A DNA stretch of 64,000 nt from Pseudomonadota bacterium (GTDB lineage Bacteria > Pseudomonadota > Gammaproteobacteria > Eutrophobiales > Eutrophobiaceae), in contig JABFGI010000008.1 in the NCBI GenBank assembly GCA_013112535.1, positions 1 through 64,000 on the forward strand. Direction: 5' to 3'. The stretch's first letter is position 1. Every line of letters starts with the position of its first letter. The translations under genes and the position numbers were made by a program. Positions 52,947-63,125 of this stretch are shown one piece after another. The notes beneath the pieces are model-generated. The model was given only the letters and a program-made list of their open reading frames with translations, was not told where the DNA came from and searched no databases.

Positions 52947-52962
52947 GGTTCAAATATGAACC
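52947..52962. promoter_or_regulatory. dyad GGTTCA-N4-TGAACC (site 1)
   Basis: GGTTCAAATATGAACC, extended to AAGGTTCA/TGAACCTT, about 85 bases upstream of the start of the secreted protein at 53047. The same 6-4-6 dyad occurs at 62742 and 63014. Candidate binding site for a dimeric regulator; it could also be the terminator-like end of the upstream transcript, but no U run follows. Confidence 0.5.
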
Positions 52963-53046
52963 TTAATGCCAGCATTTTTTGTTTCGAATGTCCTATAGTT
53001 AACTGACCTGGTTATATTATGGTCATATATAAAATGAGGATTTATT

Positions 53047-53625
53047 CTGAATATTAAAAAAATAATGTTAATTGGCACTCTGTTATATTCAAGTGCTTCC
53101 TACTCTGGTGTTCACGACTTGCCAAATGTCATTGATAATCTGCCGGATTTTGAATTTAATAATATGAAATTAGGAGATAATTTATCAACAGTATTTTTTG
53201 ATAAATATTGCCCAGCGGCTTTAAAAGACAGTGCAGAAATTGAATGTAAACAAAAGACAGAATTGAGTGGAATAAACTTATCAATCCTCTATTTTTTTTA
53301 TAATAAAAAATTACTTGCGATATCATTTAATTTTCCGTCATCAAACTACAATGATTTGATAGATATTTATACCGAAAAGTTTTCACAGTCTCCTCACAGT
53401 AATAGTGAGGAACCACTATTATTAAATACTGAAACTAAGTATATAAATGAAAAATCATCATGGAATACAACATCAGGGGAATTTGTTATAGCAAAGTACT
53501 GGAATAATGTTAAGAAAGGTTCGGCGCATATAATGTCCAATGACTATGAAAAATACAAGGTTGATAAAAGAGAAAAACTGAATGAAGGAATTTTTAAACG
53601 GATATATAGAGCTATTTTTGATTAG
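53047..53625 (+). CDS. secreted protein of unknown function, non-ATG start proposed
   Basis: 192 residues if read from the CTG at 53047; 186 from the ATG at 53065. GAGGA lies seven bases upstream of the CTG, while the ATG has no RBS, and the CTG start supplies a positively charged end to the signal peptide ('NIKKIMLIGTLLYSSASYSG'). The mature part has Cys pairs ('CPAALKDSAEIECKQKTEL') and no recognised domain. It is preceded by a GGTTCA dyad. Downstream DUF2835 gene follows after 15 bases. Confidence 0.65.
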   Translation: MNIKKIMLIGTLLYSSASYSGVHDLPNVIDNLPDFEFNNMKLGDNLSTVFFDKYCPAALKDSAEIECKQKTELSGINLSILYFFYNKKLLAISFNFPSSNYNDLIDIYTEKFSQSPHSNSEEPLLLNTETKYINEKSSWNTTSGEFVIAKYWNNVKKGSAHIMSNDYEKYKVDKREKLNEGIFKRIYRAIFD

Positions 53626-53640
53626 TAATAGTGGCTTGTC

Positions 53641-53883
53641 ATGAAAAGTCAAATACCAGCATATCGCCTTCGTTTTAAACTTTCGTTGTCAACGGAGACA
53701 TATCTGGCCTATTACAAGGGAAAAGCCAATAGTATTCAAGTGCGTTCGCTCGATAATAAAAAGATTCGGTTTCCTGCAAATGCCATTCGTAATTTTCTTA
53801 CTCATGACGGTGTTCATGGTTTGTTTGAAATTCAGTTTGATGAATGTAATAAACTCGTGGAAATAGAAAAAATTAGCTTATAG
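53641..53883 (+). CDS. DUF2835 protein
   Basis: 80 residues, matching DUF2835 in length and pattern ('RFKLSLSTETYLAYYKGKAN', 'KKIRFPANAIRNFLTHDGVH', 'GLFEIQFDECNKLVEI'). Small cytoplasmic protein of unknown function, common in gammaproteobacteria. Convergent with the HDOD gene, 21 bases between stops. Confidence 0.85.
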   Translation: MKSQIPAYRLRFKLSLSTETYLAYYKGKANSIQVRSLDNKKIRFPANAIRNFLTHDGVHGLFEIQFDECNKLVEIEKISL

Positions 53884-53904
53884 CTATATGTATGTATCCT
53901 TGAT

Positions 53905-54777
53905 TTAATGAATGCTCTCCAGATCATTCAATTCATCATTTAAATCGGCTTTTATTTCTTCACCCAATTCAACAAACAGTGCTTCTTGCACAACCAGTTC
54001 ATCAAGTGCAGAAGAGCAATTACCACAAAAATGCCAGATGTATTTTTCTTTATGTTCATTTAATACTTCATTTACAAGGAAGTTTGATAGTGTTAGTACG
54101 GCGTTTAAACCGCGGACATTCTTGTCACTAATTTCAGAATAATCAGTTTCTCCCTGAATTAGTAATGTTGTAGCGACAACAAGAGGCAATGTCCATTTTT
54201 TAGCAAAGCTACTTGCAATCAATATATTTGATGTACCGTAATGTTCGAGTTCTTCTACGTGTACAGGTTTGGCCTTTTCACAGGCACTTGTAAAAACTTG
54301 TTCATAATTATTGAAATTTTTATGTAAGATCATGCTGCCACTGTTTTGAAACATTCCGGCTGTATATGCATCATCTCTATCAATACCTTCAACTATCGTT
54401 GTTAATTTGCTTGCACATAGTGCATTCATAACGGAACGCCGCCAAAGAAATTCAGATACATCTGTCTGTAATAATAATGCATCTTGTAGCTTCGGAGTAA
54501 GCACTAATATCCTGACCTTATCCGCTCCAATAAGTGATACTGCATGATTAACAGAAGTAATCTTGCTACGCATGCCAAATAATGGTGAGTTAATGATTTT
54601 CAGAACCATTTGCGACATCGCCGGATCTTTGCCAATCAAGTTACTGATAGAGCTGATGTCAGCATTTTGTCGTATGCCTTCATCTAATGCAGCTACGACT
54701 TTTGGGTAATGAGGTAAATTGAGACGGTGAGCTAAGCCTTTATTATCAACATATTCCATTACATTATCACTATCCAT
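53905..54777 (-). CDS. HDOD-domain protein
   Basis: 290 residues. HDOD signature over residues ~15-215: 'LPHYPKVVAALDEGIRQNAD', 'IGKDPAMSQMVLKIINSPLF', 'SVNHAVSLIGADKVRILVLT'. HDOD domains are degenerate HD hydrolases that act in signalling and protein binding. The histidines and aspartates of active HD enzymes are not conserved here. Stand-alone minus-strand gene. Role unknown. Confidence 0.88.
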   Translation of the reverse strand: MDSDNVMEYVDNKGLAHRLNLPHYPKVVAALDEGIRQNADISSISNLIGKDPAMSQMVLKIINSPLFGMRSKITSVNHAVSLIGADKVRILVLTPKLQDALLLQTDVSEFLWRRSVMNALCASKLTTIVEGIDRDDAYTAGMFQNSGSMILHKNFNNYEQVFTSACEKAKPVHVEELEHYGTSNILIASSFAKKWTLPLVVATTLLIQGETDYSEISDKNVRGLNAVLTLSNFLVNEVLNEHKEKYIWHFCGNCSSALDELVVQEALFVELGEEIKADLNDELNDLESIH

Positions 54778-54901
54778 TTTTAATCCTTTATTGAAGAAAA
54801 TTTTAAATTTAAGCTCTACATAAGCAAACTATATGCCAATATAACCGTGAGATTTTAGAATCATATTGAGCGTTATGTCATTGGAAACAAAAATAAGACA
54901 G

Positions 54902-55762
54902 CTAGAATCTGTTTAATAAATATATATCATCCTTATCAAGTTCAATCGTATTTGCTTGTAAACTGTCTTGAATACTTGCAACTTTGCTAGCACCGGGTAT
55001 AGGTAAAATTGAGGCGCTTTTATTTAGTAGCCATGCTATCAATATTTGATAAGGCGAAGCGTTATGTTTATCAGCAAGGACTTTTAATGAATCATTATCA
55101 GTAAGTTGTTTGTGTTGGAAATGTCCACCAACGGGACTATGAGCAATGAAAGTAATATTGCTTTTTTCGCAAAACTCAACAGTACCATCATTAAATGATC
55201 GCTGATCAAATAAACTGCATCGATTCTGAACCGATATGATTTGCGTTATAGAAAGCGCGATTTGTACCTGTTCTAAATTGACGTTTGATAAACCAATATA
55301 TTGTATTTTTCCTTCATTTTTTAAATTTAAAAGTTCACCAACTGATTCAGCTAACGGGATTTCTGGATCAGGCGAATGTAATTGATATAGAAAAATAGAC
55401 TCTGTATTAAGGTCGATCAGGCTTTGTTCGCAAGACTGTCTTAAAAATGCAGGCTTAGCATTTGCTATCCAGTTATTTTCATTACGTTTAATACCGCCTT
55501 TTGTAGCAACATGGATATTATTTTTCTGATTTAACTTTGATAATGTTTTTTCTATCAACCTTTCATTGTGGCCGACTTCTGATTCATCCATGCAATAGAC
55601 ATTCGCTGTATCAATAAAATTACCACCAGCATGAATGAAAGCCTCAATTACGGCATGTGCTTGAGTCGGGTCTGGCCGACCATTCAACGACAAGGGCATC
55701 GCACCAAGACCTATTGGAAAAATTTCAATATTGGTATTATTAAACTGTCTGGAATTTTCCAT
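54902..55762 (-). CDS. aldo/keto reductase
   Basis: 286 residues with the AKR catalytic set visible: Asp/Tyr in 'NFIDTANVYCMDESEVGHNE', Lys in 'HVATKGGIKR', His in 'FLYQLHSPDPEIP', and the NADP-binding 'ILPIPGASKVASIQDSL'. Cytoplasmic NADPH-dependent reductase; substrate unknown. Last gene of a three-gene operon with the aspartoacylase-like and glutamate-cysteine-ligase-like genes (16-base gap), so its substrate may be related to a glutamyl or aldehyde metabolite. Confidence 0.9.
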   Translation of the reverse strand: MENSRQFNNTNIEIFPIGLGAMPLSLNGRPDPTQAHAVIEAFIHAGGNFIDTANVYCMDESEVGHNERLIEKTLSKLNQKNNIHVATKGGIKRNENNWIANAKPAFLRQSCEQSLIDLNTESIFLYQLHSPDPEIPLAESVGELLNLKNEGKIQYIGLSNVNLEQVQIALSITQIISVQNRCSLFDQRSFNDGTVEFCEKSNITFIAHSPVGGHFQHKQLTDNDSLKVLADKHNASPYQILIAWLLNKSASILPIPGASKVASIQDSLQANTIELDKDDIYLLNRF

Positions 55763-55778
55763 GACGATTAATAATTAA

Positions 55779-56819
55779 CTAGCTCCATAAAGGAGAATCA
55801 TCGCTAAGGATTTTTTCACCTTGACTAATATCATAACGCTCCATCAAATAGCATAGACAATCCTGTTTAATAATGTCGATATCAGTAGTAAGCATAGCCG
55901 GAACCAGTCTTGTTTTACTATATATTTTATTGTCCTTAATATAAAAATAGTTATCAAAAATATCCTGGCCTTCTTCGTCAAGAACAATAAGTGGTTTTGA
56001 TAACTCTTTTCTGGTTTCCCCAAGTAAAGTGTCACTATTAATTTCTTCGAAATTTAATTTTTCTACTCCCTTGATAAATTCAATATCAGCTTTTTCGCCA
56101 TTAAAGCAAAAACTATATTCGTTCGGTATTTTTATTATGCCAACGGTATGATACAGGTCGATCGTTTCTTCAATACCTTCATCCGCTTCGATAGAATCCA
56201 GTTGTAGTATTTTATCGACAAAGTCCGTTGTTATTTGAATGCCATATTCATCTCCTGGTTGACCACACTCCAGGGTAACGGCGGGACAGATCTTGGCAAA
56301 GGCCAGGCTTTGAACACCTGTCGGTCGAATAAAGTAAATTACCATACGACTAAATTCACGCGCTAACTTCAGGTATTTTTTTCCTAACTTATTAATACAG
56401 GCGTAATGCGGGTTTAAACCATTATTATTGTGAATATCGATACTGGCAAAGATGTCACGTTCCTGCATGATTTTGAGTACAGATTGCATCATCAGGTTTT
56501 CCGGTTCAGTACCATTATTCCAAACTCTATTAAAATCAGGTTGGGTTTCCAGTTTACGTTTTTTGTAGCGTGCGGCTTTCACGTTGCCAATAAATATTGA
56601 TAATGAACGTGGTAGAGTTTGTCCCTGATATTTGGCGAGAATATTTTTAACGACTTCCCAACCACTGTTTTCATTGCCATGCAGCAAAACAGAGAGAAAC
56701 AACGCGGGATCTTTCTTTCCCTTAAGATGGACTAATGTTGGCCCGGATAATTCTTCATGTAATCGGTGAGCGGGGAGACTAAGAACCTTGTCGCTTAATT
56801 CATTTATTATTTTTAGCAT
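55779..56819 (-). CDS. M14/aspartoacylase-like zinc peptidase family protein
   Basis: 346 residues. Zn-site motifs of the succinylglutamate desuccinylase/aspartoacylase group: 'LHGNENSGWEVV' (HxxE), 'PDFNRVWN', 'ASIDIHNNNGLNPHYAC' and a later acidic 'AVTLECGQPGDEYG'. The family removes acyl or amino acid groups. It abuts the glutamate-cysteine-ligase-like gene with no gap, so it may modify that enzyme's product. The second half (~200-346) is unassigned. Confidence 0.82.
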   Translation of the reverse strand: MLKIINELSDKVLSLPAHRLHEELSGPTLVHLKGKKDPALFLSVLLHGNENSGWEVVKNILAKYQGQTLPRSLSIFIGNVKAARYKKRKLETQPDFNRVWNNGTEPENLMMQSVLKIMQERDIFASIDIHNNNGLNPHYACINKLGKKYLKLAREFSRMVIYFIRPTGVQSLAFAKICPAVTLECGQPGDEYGIQITTDFVDKILQLDSIEADEGIEETIDLYHTVGIIKIPNEYSFCFNGEKADIEFIKGVEKLNFEEINSDTLLGETRKELSKPLIVLDEEGQDIFDNYFYIKDNKIYSKTRLVPAMLTTDIDIIKQDCLCYLMERYDISQGEKILSDDSPLWS

Positions 56820-58235
56820 TTATATTGTCCACTTATGTACAGGCAATCCGCTGTTTTGTTGTTCAAGATAGTCTAGGCTAAGACCCTGCATATCTTTGCC
56901 ATGTTTATGAATCCAACGACGTTGCCAGTTGGCACCATTTTGCTGGTTTTCAACTCGGTCATGAATAATTGAGATGTATTTATCTATATCGTCCGGATCA
57001 ATATTTATTTTCCCAAGGCCGCGCCGGGCAGCAGGTATTAATTCATCCAGCAAAAGATTTCTGACAGAAGTCTCTCCCTGACCAGGCCAATAAAGTCTGG
57101 AATTAAGTCCATTTCGGGCACAGTCGTAAAAATTTTGTTTGGCTGTATGAAATGGAAGTTCTTCCCTGAATTTTTCAACATCATCAACTAATGCATGAGC
57201 CAAACCAAAATAAAAAGCTGCATTGGCAATGCTATCGATAACACTGGGGCCGGCAGGAATAACGCGATGTTCAATGCGTAAATGTGGTTTTTGATTCTCG
57301 TCAAAACCTATTAAAGGTCTGTTCCATCGCCAAATAGTTCCGTTATGAAATCGTAGATGGCTCAGGTGAGTATGTTCATCCTGTTTTTTTAATGGGACCA
57401 GTATTGGATAATGAGCCAGATTTTCATCAAAGCATTCCATTAGCGACTGTTGTGCATAGCTGCTACCAAAAGTAACACGACGGTAGTCTTTATTACCCAA
57501 CTCGATAGATTGTTCAAACAAAGGGATGCGAGTTTCATCCCAAAGCTGAAGTCCAAATAGATAGGGTGAGTTTGCTGTTGCTGCAATGATAGGGGCAGAT
57601 AGCATAATAGAAGCATTATAAAAATCTGCAGCATTTTCAATTGCTACCTGTAAATGAAGTTGAAACGAAGTACAGGCAGACTCAAGCATCACGTCATAGT
57701 GTGTTGTCTTGAGTGATTCTTTGCCGCTTATATCCAGGTTAATTGGCTTGCCGTTTCTTAATCTGAAGATTTGTTCGTTTAATGCCTTATAACGGTTTAA
57801 CTGAGACATATTCGCCAGCGTTAATTGATTTTCCTGAATGTCCGGCAATATTCCAATCATCATTAGTTCTGCTGAAAGATCCTGAGCAATATGTCGACAG
57901 GCATTCCAGGTTAGCTGGAGATTATTTTGCATCTGACTCAATGCATTATTCTTCAAAACAACCGGGGTGCTATTAAGTTCGACATTAAAGGCAGCAAGTT
58001 CGTGTACAACCATTGGGTCATTCAACCGATTTAGGAAAGACTGGTTGATGGGGTTAGGTAAACCAGCTGCGTTTACCAGTATCGCCTCTATTTCGTAACC
58101 ACCGACAGGACCTTTATTAGAAAAGAAATCTTTATTAAAACAATCCGAGAGCAGGGACGTTTCATTATTTAAATTCTGTGTGAAAGTACTAAAATCATGA
58201 GGTGAAAATGTATCCGAATCTATTTCTTGTCCCAT
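56820..58235 (-). CDS. glutamate-cysteine-ligase-like carboxylate-amine ligase
   Basis: 471 residues. Resembles the GCS2/YbdK-type glutamate-cysteine ligase family: 'VGGYEIEAILVNAAGLPNP', 'AFNVELNSTPVVL', 'VMLESACTSFQLHLQV', 'IWRWNRPLIGFD' and 'HLRIEHRVIPAGPS'. Such enzymes join an amino acid to glutamate or a related acid with ATP; some make glutathione precursors and others unknown peptides. First gene of the three-gene operon. Confidence 0.8.
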   Translation of the reverse strand: MGQEIDSDTFSPHDFSTFTQNLNNETSLLSDCFNKDFFSNKGPVGGYEIEAILVNAAGLPNPINQSFLNRLNDPMVVHELAAFNVELNSTPVVLKNNALSQMQNNLQLTWNACRHIAQDLSAELMMIGILPDIQENQLTLANMSQLNRYKALNEQIFRLRNGKPINLDISGKESLKTTHYDVMLESACTSFQLHLQVAIENAADFYNASIMLSAPIIAATANSPYLFGLQLWDETRIPLFEQSIELGNKDYRRVTFGSSYAQQSLMECFDENLAHYPILVPLKKQDEHTHLSHLRFHNGTIWRWNRPLIGFDENQKPHLRIEHRVIPAGPSVIDSIANAAFYFGLAHALVDDVEKFREELPFHTAKQNFYDCARNGLNSRLYWPGQGETSVRNLLLDELIPAARRGLGKINIDPDDIDKYISIIHDRVENQQNGANWQRRWIHKHGKDMQGLSLDYLEQQNSGLPVHKWTI

Positions 58236-58335
58236 TTATTCAGTTCTCATTTATTAATGACAAAATTTTTATCTTAAATCCGACTATCCAATCTTTATCA
58301 TACGACTTTTATGTATATCTGTTAACATCTAAAGA

Positions 58336-59040
58336 ATGACTAATGAGTTAAAAGCAAGAGAAGCAAGAAAATTATTATTAGCCGGGTATCAGGGAGTTTT
58401 AAGTACACATTCTGTCGACGTTAAAGGTTATCCCTTTGGCTCGGTTGTACCTTATTGTTTAAACAAAGCAGGAATGCCAATCATCCTGATTAGCTCTATT
58501 GCACAGCACACTAAAAATATCCTGTCTGATTCAAAAGTATCGTTGGTTGTTACAGAAATTGAAGCTGATGATCTTCAGGCTGTTGGTAGAATTACCTATA
58601 TTGCTAATGCTGTAAAAATGGATGACGATCAAGACAGCATAGAGCGATACTATCAATATTTTCCGCAGTCGCGAGATTTTCATAAAATACATGATTTTGA
58701 CTTTTACCTGCTTCAGCCTGTACGCATCCGGTTTATAGGTGGATTTGGTCAAATTTACTGGTTGGATAATGATGAATTTTTATTAACCAATCTGTTTAGT
58801 TTTGATGATGAAAAAGGAATGATTGACCACATGAATCTTGATCATGCCGATGCAATTAAGCATTATTGTGATTCAAATGATATTCAATATTCAGAAGAGT
58901 CTTGCCCTGTTATGGTTGGAATTGATTGTGAAGGGTTTAATATACGAATCGGTGCTCGTATACATCGCATTAATTTTGTCGAGCCGGTAAAATCAGCATT
59001 AGAAGTTCGCACGGCATTGGTTGAAATGGCAAAAAGTTAA
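58336..59040 (+). CDS. HugZ-family PNPOx-like protein with DUF2470
   Basis: 234 residues. N-terminal split-barrel PNPOx-like domain (~5-150; 'YQGVLSTHSVDVKGYPFGSV', 'LISSIAQHTKNILSDSKVSL') and C-terminal DUF2470 (~155-230; 'MIDHMNLDHADAIKHYC'). The HugZ group includes haem-binding or haem-degrading proteins; whether this one binds haem is not visible. First gene of a short plus-strand cluster with pilin-like and EF-hand genes. Confidence 0.88.
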   Translation: MTNELKAREARKLLLAGYQGVLSTHSVDVKGYPFGSVVPYCLNKAGMPIILISSIAQHTKNILSDSKVSLVVTEIEADDLQAVGRITYIANAVKMDDDQDSIERYYQYFPQSRDFHKIHDFDFYLLQPVRIRFIGGFGQIYWLDNDEFLLTNLFSFDDEKGMIDHMNLDHADAIKHYCDSNDIQYSEESCPVMVGIDCEGFNIRIGARIHRINFVEPVKSALEVRTALVEMAKS

Positions 59041-59042
59041 TT

Positions 59043-59534
59043 ATGAATAAGACGCTGGTAATTTTAATTCTCGCAGTGATTGTTCTATGCTGGAATTTCG
59101 TTTTTACCGATACAAAAAAAATTGATTTAACTGACCCTGCCAAAGTACTACAGGGATTATCTCAATCAATACAATATAAACTTGCCATAATAAAATATTG
59201 GAAAGAGAAAAAAAGTTTGCCTGATGCTGATGAGTGGTCAAATGCAGGTAATAATATTGAAATTGATACCAGTAAGTCGCTGGTTGAGACTATTGAAGTA
59301 GGTATGGATGCACCGGGAGCTATTACGGTTTATTTTGCGAACAAAGAAAATATACCACTTGAAAAAGATATTGATGGAACAAAGATCGTATTAGTGCCGG
59401 AAATAAACGGAGAAAGACTGGTTTGGACTTGTAGAGGGACAATGCATCAGGAATACATGCCAAGTAAATGTCAGCAGGATATTCCTGAAGACAATACAAA
59501 AATAGAATTACAAGGTAATAATCAAGAGAGATAA
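59043..59534 (+). CDS. pilin-like protein with one membrane helix
   Basis: 163 residues. N-terminal helix (residues ~4-18 'TLVILILAVIVLCWNFVF'), then a domain whose end resembles PilA-type pilins ('GAITVYFANKENIPLEKDID', 'VPEINGERLVWTCRGTMHQE', 'YMPSKCQQD', with two Cys in the pattern of the pilin disulfide loop). It has no type III leader peptide motif (no G-F/E processing site), so it is not itself a canonical pilin. Starts two bases after the hugZ-type gene. Confidence 0.7.
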   Translation: MNKTLVILILAVIVLCWNFVFTDTKKIDLTDPAKVLQGLSQSIQYKLAIIKYWKEKKSLPDADEWSNAGNNIEIDTSKSLVETIEVGMDAPGAITVYFANKENIPLEKDIDGTKIVLVPEINGERLVWTCRGTMHQEYMPSKCQQDIPEDNTKIELQGNNQER

Positions 59535-59537
59535 CGA

Positions 59538-59768
59538 ATGAGCGATTTAACTGAAGACGAACTGGTAGAAATAAAAAAAATATTTGCTAAATACGATGTT
59601 GATGATAACGATACCATTGATTGGGAAGAATTTTGCAATATGGTAGATGAACTGGATATTGAAGTATCGTTAAAAGATAGAACGATTGTGTTTGATAAAG
59701 TAGATACTAATCACTCCGGCATGATTAATTTTGAAGAATTTGTCGAATGTTGGAAAAATAAGGGCTAG
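59538..59768 (+). CDS. EF-hand calcium-binding protein
   Basis: 76 residues, two EF-hand loops of twelve residues: D20-E31 (DVDDNDTIDWEE) and D56-E67 (DTNHSGMINFEE). Both have the acidic residues at ligand positions 1, 3, 5 and 12. No signal peptide, so a cytoplasmic calcium sensor or buffer is likely. It follows the pilin-like gene by three bases and is convergent with the CNBD gene. Confidence 0.92.
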   Translation: MSDLTEDELVEIKKIFAKYDVDDNDTIDWEEFCNMVDELDIEVSLKDRTIVFDKVDTNHSGMINFEEFVECWKNKG

Positions 59769-59779
59769 AGATTTGAGTG

Positions 59780-60271
59780 TTACGCTGCGACTTCGTCTGC
59801 CAGTTTATCTGTTGTTATCCTCAGGTTATCACTTAAACTCTGAGCAACACCTTTAAGTATATTAACGCCGAGTTCTGGTTCAGACTGAATCATAAGGTCA
59901 AATGCTTTTTGAGTCAGTACTGCTAATTGAGTGTCTTCAACAGCTCTTATTGTGGCTGATCTCGGCTCATTATCAATTATCGCCATTTCACCGATACAAT
60001 AGCCTTCATTTAGCGTAGCGATGACAGTAGTAAAGTTTTGCCAGGTTGTTAGTTTGATAACTTCCAATGAACCTGAAATGATGAAGCAGACATAGTCGCC
60101 GTCATCGCCTTCTTTAAACAGGGTTTCTCCTGTTTTTAATTCCAGCTTTTCAATATAAGCCATAATCTTATCCATCTGCTCTGCAGATAAATAAGAAAAA
60201 AATAAATGATTTTTTAACAATTCTTTCATAACCATGCCCAGGTTATTAAACCTTGGATTAGTTATCGGCAA
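59780..60271 (-). CDS. cyclic-nucleotide-binding domain protein
   Basis: 163 residues, one CNBD and nothing else. Phosphate-binding cassette 'GYCIGEMAIIDNEPRSATI' is intact, with 'LFKEGDDGDYVCFIISGSLE' ahead. No DNA-binding domain. Start 60271; an ATG at 60235 would begin right at the folded part. It belongs to the same domain family as the second CNBDs of the proteins at 23818 and 28850 but is short. Possibly cotranscribed with the two exported proteins upstream (29-base gap). Confidence 0.88.
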   Translation of the reverse strand: MPITNPRFNNLGMVMKELLKNHLFFSYLSAEQMDKIMAYIEKLELKTGETLFKEGDDGDYVCFIISGSLEVIKLTTWQNFTTVIATLNEGYCIGEMAIIDNEPRSATIRAVEDTQLAVLTQKAFDLMIQSEPELGVNILKGVAQSLSDNLRITTDKLADEVAA

Positions 60272-60300
60272 AAATAAAGGTTTCTATAGTGTTATTTTTA

Positions 60301-61191
60301 TCAAACTCTACATTGACTCACTTTCTGTATATGAGACTGGCTTATATTGTGTTTATGATCATGTGATTCCAGAAACTTTGCTTCCAGTACGTATGCGAGG
60401 GATTCCAGTTCATTTTTGCACTTGACGTTATCATCTAACCCTGTTTGATATTGTAAATAATGAACCAGTTCGTGTAATAAAATTCCTTTGCCTTCATCAG
60501 TATCCAGATCAATTGTGTCGAGTAGATAAACGGCTTTTTCATTAAAGTTATACAGCCCGAAAATCTGCAAGTTTTCCGGGTTTACTGCTTTTGGTAATTT
60601 CCCACCAAACGCCACCACGGCAATTTGCCTGGCAGAGACCTTCTTTATGTCCGGTAAAGTATCAATATTGTATTCAAAAGAAGAATGACTGTTTATCCAT
60701 CCTAACAGTCCTGACACCAGTTCATCCTGGCTCTTGTATGAATCAAAGTCGAAATCAAATCCCGGTTCAACATGTGTCTGGGTAACATCATTATCAAGAT
60801 GCGTATCATGGTCATGACCGAATGAAGATTTTGCCTGAGCTGTTTGCGACATTAAACCCGCAGTTAACATCATGACAGAGACAACATTAGCATGATGACG
60901 ATTTTTGACACGTTTAACACCTTCAAGAAAGTCGGCACGTTGGTCTTCCTTTAACTCATAGCCCTGTTTTCTGGAAAACTCAACAATCTTTTGAAAAGCA
61001 AACGGATCTTTTTGTTCCAGACCATGTTCATAGACGAGAGTATGTTTCCCGTCGATGATACATGGGTGAACCATCGCTTGTTGTTTCTTCTTCAATGTCA
61101 TTGACTGCATGATTCGTTCAACCAGATTACCTGGTTGTTTCTGCGCATCAATCTTGTGAAGATTGTTGAGTATGCTTACCACATCAGACAT
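60301..61191 (-). CDS. exported putative zinc metalloprotease with N-terminal shared module
   Basis: 296 residues. Residues 1-85 are a soluble module shared with the gene next to it: VHPCII at 41-46, 'LVYEHGLEQKDP' and 'LKEDQR' at 80-85. A signal-peptide-like segment follows at ~101-120 (VSVMMLTAGLM, AQA/K). The exported part contains HELVH at 240-244 ('GILLHELVHYLQYQTG'), a zincin active-site motif. The protein thus has a ~100-residue cytoplasmic extension in front of its signal. Function unknown; protease activity inferred. RBS GGAGA precedes the start. Confidence 0.75.
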   Translation of the reverse strand: MSDVVSILNNLHKIDAQKQPGNLVERIMQSMTLKKKQQAMVHPCIIDGKHTLVYEHGLEQKDPFAFQKIVEFSRKQGYELKEDQRADFLEGVKRVKNRHHANVVSVMMLTAGLMSQTAQAKSSFGHDHDTHLDNDVTQTHVEPGFDFDFDSYKSQDELVSGLLGWINSHSSFEYNIDTLPDIKKVSARQIAVVAFGGKLPKAVNPENLQIFGLYNFNEKAVYLLDTIDLDTDEGKGILLHELVHYLQYQTGLDDNVKCKNELESLAYVLEAKFLESHDHKHNISQSHIQKVSQCRV

Positions 61192-61234
61192 ATGTTTATT
61201 TATTCTCCAAACCGTTAATTAAATTAATTAACAA

Positions 61235-62248
61235 TTAGCTCTTGTCGCCACTAATGTCGCTGGCAGAAGCAATATTCATATCAGGTGTTTTACCACTGGC
61301 AATCAGGTTTTTAACTGTTTCATTAATGGCTGTGCCATAAGCATTACCAAGATTAGAGTAATCTTCTTCGGCCAAAACAGCGGTATAACCAATTGCATAA
61401 GATGCTTTTAATAATCCCATGCCATCTTTACTACCATCGCCCATCATTAACTGCATGGATGAATTATCTTTGTCGCCAAGTAACTGGTCATAAGGGCCCC
61501 ATAACTTGGGAGAAGAAAAAGCACCGCCGCCAACAAGCACATCCAGAACTACCTTACCGTCACCAGCGTGATAACCTAGTGCACCAAAACCCTCTCCTTC
61601 GTAGTAACTAAAGGTTTCGCCATTGGCAAAGGTTCTTTCATATTTATTGATGAAACCGCCAACATAACCCTGCGGCATTTTGATGCCACGAGTACTAACG
61701 CGTTTCAATTTTCCTTCGGCCTTGGTTTGTGCTGCAACAGCAAGGATAGATTCTGTTTCACCATAAGGATTGGTTATAAAACGTTTACCGTTTTCCTGAA
61801 TATAAGCTCGGTCAGAACGGTCGTAGGTTCCGGTAACTTCAATATCAGACATAACTTTAATATCCGAGCCAGGTGCTCCAATGTCAGCGGCACTAGATGA
61901 ACCGGACATAAAGATACCACTGGCAAGAAATAACAAAGGCAAAGACTTAGCCAATCTTCGTTCAAATTTAACAGGTTTACTTTCCTTAACGCGTTGATCT
62001 TCCTTGATACCAAAGTTATTCATCTGCGCATAAGCCTTTAATTGTTCAAAAGCTTCAGGACTCTGCTCCTGAAGACCATACTCGTGAACTAACACGCGAT
62101 GATTGTTAATAATACAAGGGTGAACTTTTGTCGCCTTTTTTAATTTGCGTTTAATTCTGTTCTTAAGAAAGCTTTCTGACACTCTCTCAATCCAGTTCGT
62201 AGGTTCATCACCTTCCTCGATTGTACTTACTGCAGCATTCATACTCAT
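61235..62248 (-). CDS. exported protein with N-terminal shared module, unknown function
   Basis: 337 residues. Module at 1-86 matches the neighbour: VHPCII at 42-47, 'LVHEYGLQEQSPEAFEQL', IKEDQR at 81-86. The membrane or signal segment is at ~101-120 (SLPLLFLASGIFM, SSSA/AD). The rest is a secreted domain rich in Gly and aromatic residues with no recognised family ('GGFINKYERTFANGETFSYY', 'VVLDVLVGGGAFSSPKLWGP'). RBS GGAGA precedes the start. Lies in an operon between the winged-helix gene and the metalloprotease gene. Confidence 0.75.
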   Translation of the reverse strand: MSMNAAVSTIEEGDEPTNWIERVSESFLKNRIKRKLKKATKVHPCIINNHRVLVHEYGLQEQSPEAFEQLKAYAQMNNFGIKEDQRVKESKPVKFERRLAKSLPLLFLASGIFMSGSSSAADIGAPGSDIKVMSDIEVTGTYDRSDRAYIQENGKRFITNPYGETESILAVAAQTKAEGKLKRVSTRGIKMPQGYVGGFINKYERTFANGETFSYYEGEGFGALGYHAGDGKVVLDVLVGGGAFSSPKLWGPYDQLLGDKDNSSMQLMMGDGSKDGMGLLKASYAIGYTAVLAEEDYSNLGNAYGTAINETVKNLIASGKTPDMNIASASDISGDKS

Positions 62249-62289
62249 GTTAAAATCTCCAATAATATTAAAATAATAAACCTGTTTAT

Positions 62290-62688
62290 CTATGCAGATT
62301 CAGCTTGCGGCTTTCTTGAATCCACCCATTGTGATACAAAACTATCAAAATCATCTTTAAACTTGTCCGTCAACCTTACGCGTTTCACTCTTGAATCATT
62401 TTTGTCATGCACTCGAGTGACTATTCGCATCTCTTCAAGCAACTCCAGATTTCGAAGCGACTTGTTTCGTGGTTCACCCACATTTAAATAAACTTCTTTT
62501 ACTGACGGCATATGATGTCGCAAATTACTTATGCCAATAAAAAAAACAGTGTCGAATATTGTTCCGAGCATTTTACTTTTGCTCAGGGTTGTTGATTCAT
62601 TCGAATATAGCCCAATCAAATCAACAAACCGATCTCTGACTCTCAACAAATTTTCCAATTCGCCTTCGCGATAATTTAATTCCATCAC
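62290..62688 (-). CDS. winged-helix transcription regulator (MarR-like)
   Basis: 132 residues. Helical start 'ENLLRVRDRFVDLIGLY', helix-turn-helix over ~60-95 ('MPSVKEVYLNVGEPRNKSLR') and a wing 'THDKNDSRVKRVRLTD'-like segment near 110. Predicted to bind DNA as a dimer. First gene of the operon with the two module-tagged exported proteins, 41 bases ahead of the first. The dyad at 62742 lies 54 bases upstream of its start and fits autoregulation. Confidence 0.75.
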   Translation of the reverse strand: MMELNYREGELENLLRVRDRFVDLIGLYSNESTTLSKSKMLGTIFDTVFFIGISNLRHHMPSVKEVYLNVGEPRNKSLRNLELLEEMRIVTRVHDKNDSRVKRVRLTDKFKDDFDSFVSQWVDSRKPQAESA

Positions 62689-62741
62689 TGCTTTTATGCT
62701 TCCAAGTCTAGTAACTCAATTTATTCACGCAATGTGTTAAG

Positions 62742-62757
62742 GGTTCAGTTCTGAACC
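62742..62757. promoter_or_regulatory. dyad GGTTCA-N4-TGAACC (site 2)
   Basis: GGTTCAGTTCTGAACC, perfect 6-4-6 dyad, 54 bases upstream of the winged-helix gene start, an expected operator position on the minus-strand promoter. Confidence 0.6.
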
Positions 62758-63013
62758 TAGTTTTAACTTATGGCGTAAAACACTTGCCAGACCTCAAATA
62801 TCAAAGCAAAAACCGATAATTTTTTTACTTAACAATCCGGGTCTACATTTAACGTTCCCGAGCAGTCGAGCCAAACCTGATCCGAAATCAACCTATACCC
62901 TGTTTATCGGTAAGTGTTCTTAAAAACTTTAGGATTCAATGACATAGTGGAAGCGTAATGATTAACTCGTAATATATTGAAATAGCAGGAATTTTGTATT
63001 AATTGCTGAAAAC

Positions 63014-63029
63014 AGGTTCAGATTTGAAC
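63014..63029. promoter_or_regulatory. dyad GGTTCA-N4-TGAACC (site 3)
   Basis: GGTTCAGATTTGAACC, part of a longer ten-pair dyad AACAGGTTCA/TGAACCTGTT (63011-63034). About 330 bases upstream of the winged-helix gene and ~100 bases after the GGDEF stop. No T run follows, so an operator or secondary site is likelier than a terminator. Confidence 0.5.
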
Positions 63030-63125
63030 CTGTTTATGGAGCAGTTGGATTTTAGAATAGTGAAGGAGATATATGCTATATCAGGAATTGATAAATTTTT
63101 CCGACAAAAAGTAACAGGTATAACA

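What the first reader, a model, noticed from the sequence alone, without database searches (positions are those of the whole stretch)
52947..63029. Recurrent dyad GGTTCA-N4-TGAACC at three sites
Identical half-sites and spacing occur at 52947, 62742 and 63014. Two flank the control region of the winged-helix/exported protein operon and one lies upstream of a small secreted protein gene with no known family. Random occurrence of a 12-base specific dyad three times in 64 kb is unlikely. The winged-helix protein at 62290 is the obvious candidate regulator.
Basis: partly seen in the sequence, partly recalled or inferred. Interest (0 to 1): 0.6.

Follow-up and report, generated by a model that had tools for sequence, protein, structure and literature searches.

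The report
MarR-like regulator's conserved promoter sites
Three identical mirror-image DNA sites near a small DNA-binding protein gene are very probably its binding sites: close relatives that keep the gene keep the sites, set a fixed distance from the promoter, so this looks like a small, previously undescribed gene-control circuit of a familiar kind.

Summary
GGTTCA-N4-TGAACC occurs exactly at 52947, 62742 and 63015 (not 63014). These are the only three exact copies in the 3.05 Mb genome. All nine one-mismatch copies lie inside ORFs.

The sites are conserved. All five same-genus orthologues of the winged-helix gene keep both upstream dyads at 0-2 mismatches. All five orthologues of the small secreted protein keep one upstream.

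Dyad plus hexamer matches only those two places in the genome, and 25 places in 12 genus genomes against 0 for a reversed control. The distal (63015) and proximal dyads bracket a sigma-28-like promoter.

The winged-helix protein has a MarR-type fold. Best reading: it binds these sites, probably activating from about -52 and regulating itself. In relatives the same layout precedes a diguanylate cyclase, an adhesin-like gene and possible small RNAs.

Binding, direction of control and ligand are untested. One genome keeps a site without a detected regulator. This is a new regulon of a known kind.

The parts
52947..52962 (+). Dyad GGTTCA-AATA-TGAACC, proposed operator of the secreted-protein gene
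   Evidence: conserved upstream of 5 of 5 orthologues found
52994..52999 (+). Predicted -10 element TATAGT starting 32 bases after the dyad; no good -35 seen by eye
   Evidence: conserved position in orthologues (one is +1)
53065..53625 (+). Small secreted protein gene (186 aa, signal-peptide-like start, no Pfam family)
   Evidence: fold search gave no significant match
63015..63030 (.). Distal dyad GGTTCA-GATT-TGAACC of the winged-helix operon
   Evidence: kept at 0-1 mismatch in 5 of 5 same-genus orthologues, 273-292 bases from the proximal dyad
62904..62931 (-). Predicted sigma-28 (FliA-type) promoter TAAAG-N15-ACCGATAA reading toward the operon, between the two dyads
   Evidence: present in 5 of 5 same-genus orthologues (0-1 mismatch); boxes 95% identical against 69% for the whole intergenic stretch
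62742..62757 (.). Proximal dyad GGTTCA-GTTC-TGAACC, proposed operator of the winged-helix operon
62727..62732 (-). Weak -35-like TTGCGT, 16 bases before the predicted -10
   Evidence: sequence
62705..62710 (-). Predicted -10 element TAGACT starting 32 bases after the proximal dyad
62290..62688 (-). MarR-type winged-helix protein gene (132 aa), proposed reader of the dyads; the ATG at 62685 is the likelier start (alignment A2)
61235..62248 (-). Second operon gene: DUF3579-like N-terminal part, membrane segment by eye, exported part (337 aa)
60301..61191 (-). Third operon gene: related N-terminal part, membrane segment by eye, DUF6647 metallopeptidase-like part with HELVH (296 aa)
   Evidence: (DUF6647 just under the cut-off)

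Best explanation
GGTTCA-N4-TGAACC is the operator of the MarR-type winged-helix protein encoded at 62290-62688. Shown by sequence: the dyads are unique in this genome, intergenic, conserved with the regulator gene, and two of the three sit at a fixed distance (31 bases) upstream of a -10-like hexamer. Inferred: a dimer of the protein binds each dyad. At the two gene-proximal sites it sits centred near -52, just upstream of a poor -35, and most likely helps RNA polymerase start (activation); it thereby controls its own operon (two exported or membrane proteins, one metallopeptidase-like) and the secreted-protein gene 10 kb away. The distal dyad at 63015 lies on the far side of a sigma-28-like promoter and close to a whole number of helical turns from the proximal dyad, which would suit a DNA loop or a second input site that tunes the flagellar-type promoter.
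For: Only 3 exact copies in 3.05 Mb, all within 10.1 kb, reversed control 0. Conserved in 5 of 5 same-genus winged-helix orthologues and 5 of 5 secreted-protein orthologues. Dyad arms 96% identical against 69% for the whole intergenic alignment. The dyad-to-(-10) distance is 31 bases in 9 of the 10 winged-helix-type promoters tabulated; the tenth (G017) is 41 by my count on the sequence, one helical turn more. It is also 31 in 5 of 6 secreted-protein promoters (32 in the sixth), while the dyad-to-coding distance varies from 46 to 79. Dyad plus -10 pattern: 2 hits in the own genome, both these promoters; 25 in the 12 genus genomes (20 intergenic, 5 in ORFs) against 0 reversed; 6 against 5 in 28 other genomes. 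In G017 the winged-helix gene and the other operon genes lie on different contigs and both keep a dyad promoter. MarR-type fold (Z about 12 to MepR over 113 residues, rmsd 3.5).
Against: No binding or expression data. G002 (85% complete) keeps the dyad at the secreted-protein gene with no winged-helix match, and G005 has a dyad element with none. In G005 a fragment of the third operon gene starts at base 19 of a contig, so the rest may be unassembled. The distal dyad has no -10 at the fixed distance. Promoter elements are predictions; the winged-helix -10s are only 4 of 6 matches to TATAAT. The genus genomes are related, so counts are not independent. G016 carries the regulator, but its operon dyads have 3 mismatches each. 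Position -52 is unusual for an activator, and activation against repression is inferred from geometry alone.
Confidence: 0.73

Rival explanations
1. Same operator and regulator, but the protein is a repressor: it binds the proximal dyad, and perhaps loops to the distal dyad, to shut the sigma-28 and sigma-70 promoters until a ligand releases it.
For: Most characterised MarR proteins are ligand-released autorepressors (general knowledge). Two dyads bracket the sigma-28-like promoter, 273-292 bases apart, within about a quarter turn of a whole number of helical turns in all 6 genomes.
Against: The proximal dyad does not overlap the predicted -10 or -35. The constant 31-base distance in unrelated promoters suggests contact with polymerase rather than simple blocking. 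The phase agreement is weak evidence (six related genomes).
Confidence: 0.3
2. The dyads are transcription terminators or RNA hairpins.
For: Each folds as a 6-9 base-pair hairpin with a 4-base loop; the one at 52947 follows a stop codon by 22 bases; 62741 was listed as terminator-like on the + strand.
Against: On the transcribed strand none has a clear U-run after the stem (63015 has only TGTTTT, partly inside its longer stem). The outermost pair is broken in 11 of 29 tabulated sites. The sequence is conserved, not just the pairing, and the distance to a -10 is fixed. Terminators with this stem would be expected elsewhere, but only three copies exist.
Confidence: 0.05
3. The dyads belong to a different regulator encoded elsewhere; the winged-helix gene is only a target.
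For: G002 keeps a secreted-protein dyad without a detectable winged-helix gene.
Against: Of the other five same-genus genomes without the gene, four (G001, G006, G008, G010) have no intergenic dyad promoter; G005 has one, possibly with an assembly gap at the operon. A wide-acting regulator would be expected to have sites far from this locus in the own genome, and there are none.
Confidence: 0.2
4. Chance recurrence of a short palindrome.
For: Motif picked after the fact from a 64 kb window.
Against: Shuffles, reversed controls and conservation across relatives.
Confidence: 0.01

Closest known systems
MarR family regulators SlyA / RovA / MepR
   Same: Winged-helix fold with flanking helices; best solved-structure matches by profile (SlyA, E 5e-4) and by fold (MepR Z 12.3). 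Palindromic 16-base operator next to the regulator's own gene. SlyA is known as an activator of a silenced promoter (PMC2156107, listing and start of abstract only).
   Different: Only about 12-22% identity in the structural matches. Protein scores below Pfam's HTH_27 cut-off (19.8 against 22.2 bits). Operon partners are exported or peptidase-like proteins, and the promoter layout with sigma-28 was not found in print in my searches.
PapX / FocX of uropathogenic E. coli
   Same: MarR-like proteins encoded with surface-structure genes that bind a palindrome upstream of flagellar control genes (PMC6246914, passages read).
   Different: They repress motility through a 29-bp site 220 bp upstream of the flhDC start; here the dyad is 16 bp, sits at the regulator's own promoter and at a fixed distance from a -10.

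Membership tests
MarR family transcription regulator | Winged-helix domain between N- and C-terminal helices, 130-170 residues | tested here: met
   AlphaFold model pLDDT 81.8, helix-helix-helix-helix-strand-strand-helix; 107 PDB matches at E <= 0.001, of which the 50 shown look almost all MarR-type; Z up to 12.3, rmsd 3.5 over 113 residues. The other four AlphaFold models were less confident (54.6-67.0).
MarR family transcription regulator | Sequence match to curated MarR-type models | tested here: inconclusive
   HTH_27 E 0.001, below cut-off; NCBIfam SlyA E 0.0016, below cut-off; profile search against PDB: SlyA E 5e-4
MarR family transcription regulator | Palindromic operator at its own promoter | tested here: met
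   Dyad upstream of the gene here and in all 8 other loci examined, diverged in G016 and G017. Presence only; binding not tested
MarR family transcription regulator | Dimer that binds the dyad, often released by a small ligand | not testable with these tools
   needs protein
Intrinsic terminator | Stem-loop followed by a U-run on the transcribed strand | tested here: not met
   Stems fold, but the tails on the transcribed strand lack clear U-runs; the only listed match is on the + strand at 62741
Dispersed repeat (REP- or uptake-sequence-like) | Many copies across the genome | tested here: not met
   3 exact copies in 3.05 Mb

The most novel reading that the evidence does not exclude
A lineage-restricted MarR-type activator that contacts RNA polymerase from a fixed site near -52 at both ordinary and flagellar (sigma-28) promoters, and so ties a flagellar-class signal to secreted proteins, a membrane peptidase pair, a diguanylate cyclase, an adhesin and small RNAs: a motility-to-attachment switch. 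In G016 the dyad stands 31 bases before CGATAA of the predicted sigma-28 -10 of flagellin, the same spacing as at the other promoters.
Probability: 0.25. Interest if true: 0.6.

Novelty: new member of a known kind. Interest (0 to 1): 0.42.

Why it matters
It turns a bare motif sighting into a testable regulon: a specific protein, a 16-base operator, a fixed promoter geometry and a target list across an uncultured gammaproteobacterial genus. If the geometry does mean activation on two kinds of sigma factor, it would be a clean case for studying how MarR proteins activate, which is less well understood than how they repress (my general knowledge).

Tried and rejected
Terminator and RNA-hairpin readings, a dispersed repeat and chance were tested and rejected. 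The -10 spacing was looked for at the distal dyad by eye and by the pattern and not found. The secreted protein: no Pfam family (a sub-threshold 'Virulence determinant' match at E 0.017 was not pursued), no significant fold match. Search for a homologue of the G004 RNA-like element in the own genome: none; only G004 (2) and G005 (1) among 40 genomes. Search for the diguanylate cyclase of L140 in the own genome: none at E <= 1e-60 among 16 genomes (3 hits: G003, G007, G009). The paper search with bare half-sites matched 'marrow' and was useless; the exact motif strings gave 0 papers. A search for MarR activator papers gave 7 listings, a six-term search gave 0, a MarR/diguanylate cyclase search gave 1 unrelated review. 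DUF3579/DUF6647 gave one paper, passages read. FliA itself was not looked for in the own genome. Loci L053-L056 were fetched and not analysed. In one search thirteen of the loci were examined; the four non-genus rows from G013 and G042 were not. The family-averaged -10 profile used four promoter families; the G003:C50, G016 flagellin, G004:C45 and G011 adhesin sites were tabulated but left out of it.

Full report
Observation. The dyad GGTTCA-N4-TGAACC is present exactly at 52947-52962, 62742-62757 and 63015-63030 (the finding's 63014 is off by one). The whole 3.05 Mb genome has only these three, and the reversed pattern has none. With up to two mismatches there are 102 places against 47 for the reversed control; nine of these have one mismatch and all nine lie inside long ORFs. 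About 91% of the window is coding, yet all three exact copies are intergenic. A look-elsewhere test over all 6-base dyads with spacings 0-10 found no comparable word in 60 shuffles of the window.

Conservation at the winged-helix operon. Orthologues of the 62290 gene occur in 8 of 58 genomes searched, the own included, and in the same 8 of 53 genomes of the family; a named collection gave eight loci, one of them (L050) absent from my G-handle set (records of the window's own genome may be left out there). All five same-genus orthologues (G003, G004, G007, G009, G011) keep a proximal dyad (0-2 mismatches) and a distal dyad (0-1 mismatch), 273-292 bases apart. In G016 the corresponding sites have three mismatches each. 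L050 has an exact proximal dyad. In G017 the gene and the rest of the operon are on different contigs, and each has a dyad in front: two mismatches at the gene, one at the operon. Dyad arms are 96% identical among the six genus sequences against 69% for the intergenic alignment.

Conservation at the secreted-protein gene. Orthologues of the 53065 gene were found in 6 of 37 genomes, the own included. All six keep a dyad with 0-2 mismatches upstream.

A fixed distance to the promoter. Aligning upstream regions showed a -10-like hexamer starting 32 bases after the dyad at both unrelated promoters: TAGACT at 62710-62705 on the minus strand and TATAGT at 52994-52999. The distance is 31 bases in 9 of 10 winged-helix-type promoters tabulated, and in the tenth (G017) TAAACT starts at base 42, one helical turn further by my count on the sequence. 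It is 31 in 5 of 6 secreted-protein promoters and 32 in the sixth. The distance from dyad to the coding start varies between 46 and 79, so it is the promoter, not the gene, that is held in register. As a genome-wide test I searched GTTCA-N4-TGAAC-N31..33-TANNNT in 40 genomes. The own genome has two hits, exactly these promoters. The 12 genus genomes have 25 hits against 0 for the reversed control, in 9 of the 12; 20 are intergenic and 5 in ORFs. The 28 other genomes have 6 against 5.

Further members in relatives. New intergenic hits lie upstream of a membrane diguanylate cyclase (GGDEF, read by eye) in G003, G007 and G009, which are the only genomes of 16 with that gene; upstream of a large repetitive adhesin-like gene in G011, whose promoter closely repeats the winged-helix promoter of that genome; upstream of a 145-aa ORF in G004:C45; and in front of short structured elements in G004 (two copies, perfect TATAAT at +32) and G005. 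In G016 an exact dyad precedes a flagellin gene, with CGATAA of its predicted sigma-28 -10 at +32. G003:C50 has a dyad in front of another RNA-like element at a looser spacing. Not every exact dyad in relatives fits: those in G019 (two, both in ORFs) and G022 (intergenic) show no such hexamer.

A flagellar-type promoter between the two dyads. A TAAAG-N15-ACCGATAA box lies at 62904-62931 reading toward the operon, conserved in all six genus sequences. In this genome the exact box TAAAG-N14/15-GCCGATAA occurs six times, reversed control 0, and by eye lies in front of chemoreceptor-like, EAL/HDOD, PilZ and HD-GYP-like ORFs among others, which suits a sigma-28 regulon; FliA itself was not searched for. 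The sigma-28 consensus is recalled, not taken from a call.

The regulator. The 132-residue protein has a MarR-type model (pLDDT 81.8), with MepR, SlyA and RovA among the best structural matches, and weak sequence matches to SlyA. It is the only DNA-binding candidate I found at the locus; the nearby cyclic-nucleotide-binding protein matched only that domain.

Mechanism. The dyad centre falls near -52 of the predicted start and does not overlap -35 or -10. The constant spacing across unrelated promoters, one turn longer in one case, is most easily explained by contact with RNA polymerase, so activation is my preferred reading; classical MarR repression remains a strong rival. The distal dyad lacks the -10 spacing and stands 102-106 bases before the sigma-28 CGATA; spacings to the proximal dyad are near whole helical turns, which would fit looping but rests on six related genomes.

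Limits. The relatives whose records are named are assemblies of uncultured bacteria, and all the genomes compared are related; promoter elements are predictions, and I have no binding, start-site or expression data. My paper searches found no description of this motif or system; they cover only the open library.

Noticed in passing
60301-62248: The two genes after the regulator share a related DUF3579-like N-terminal part followed by a membrane segment and different exported parts, one with an HELVH metallopeptidase-like motif; each has relatives in 17 of 37 genomes searched. A paper places DUF6647 in peptidase clan MA.
   Followed up: partly
L030:1501-1660, L024:31-190, L023:1114-1197: G004 (two copies) and G005 (one) carry a dyad followed by a -10-like hexamer (perfect TATAAT in G004) and, in G004, a stem-loop with a T-rich tail, looking like a roughly 75-nt C-rich small RNA gene; no Rfam match apart from a nearby tRNA.
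   Followed up: partly
L136: In G011 a near-copy of the winged-helix promoter, dyad included, stands in front of a large repetitive adhesin-like ORF.
   Followed up: partly
L021:1464-1516: In G016, which has the regulator, an exact dyad lies just upstream of the predicted sigma-28 promoter of a flagellin gene.
   Followed up: partly
L027:1300-1516: In G003 an exact dyad reads (reverse strand) into a region with stem-loop-like repeats that could be another small RNA.
   Followed up: no
60262-60288: A sigma-28-like box (one mismatch) lies at the start of the cyclic-nucleotide-binding gene 59780-60271 on the minus strand.
   Followed up: no
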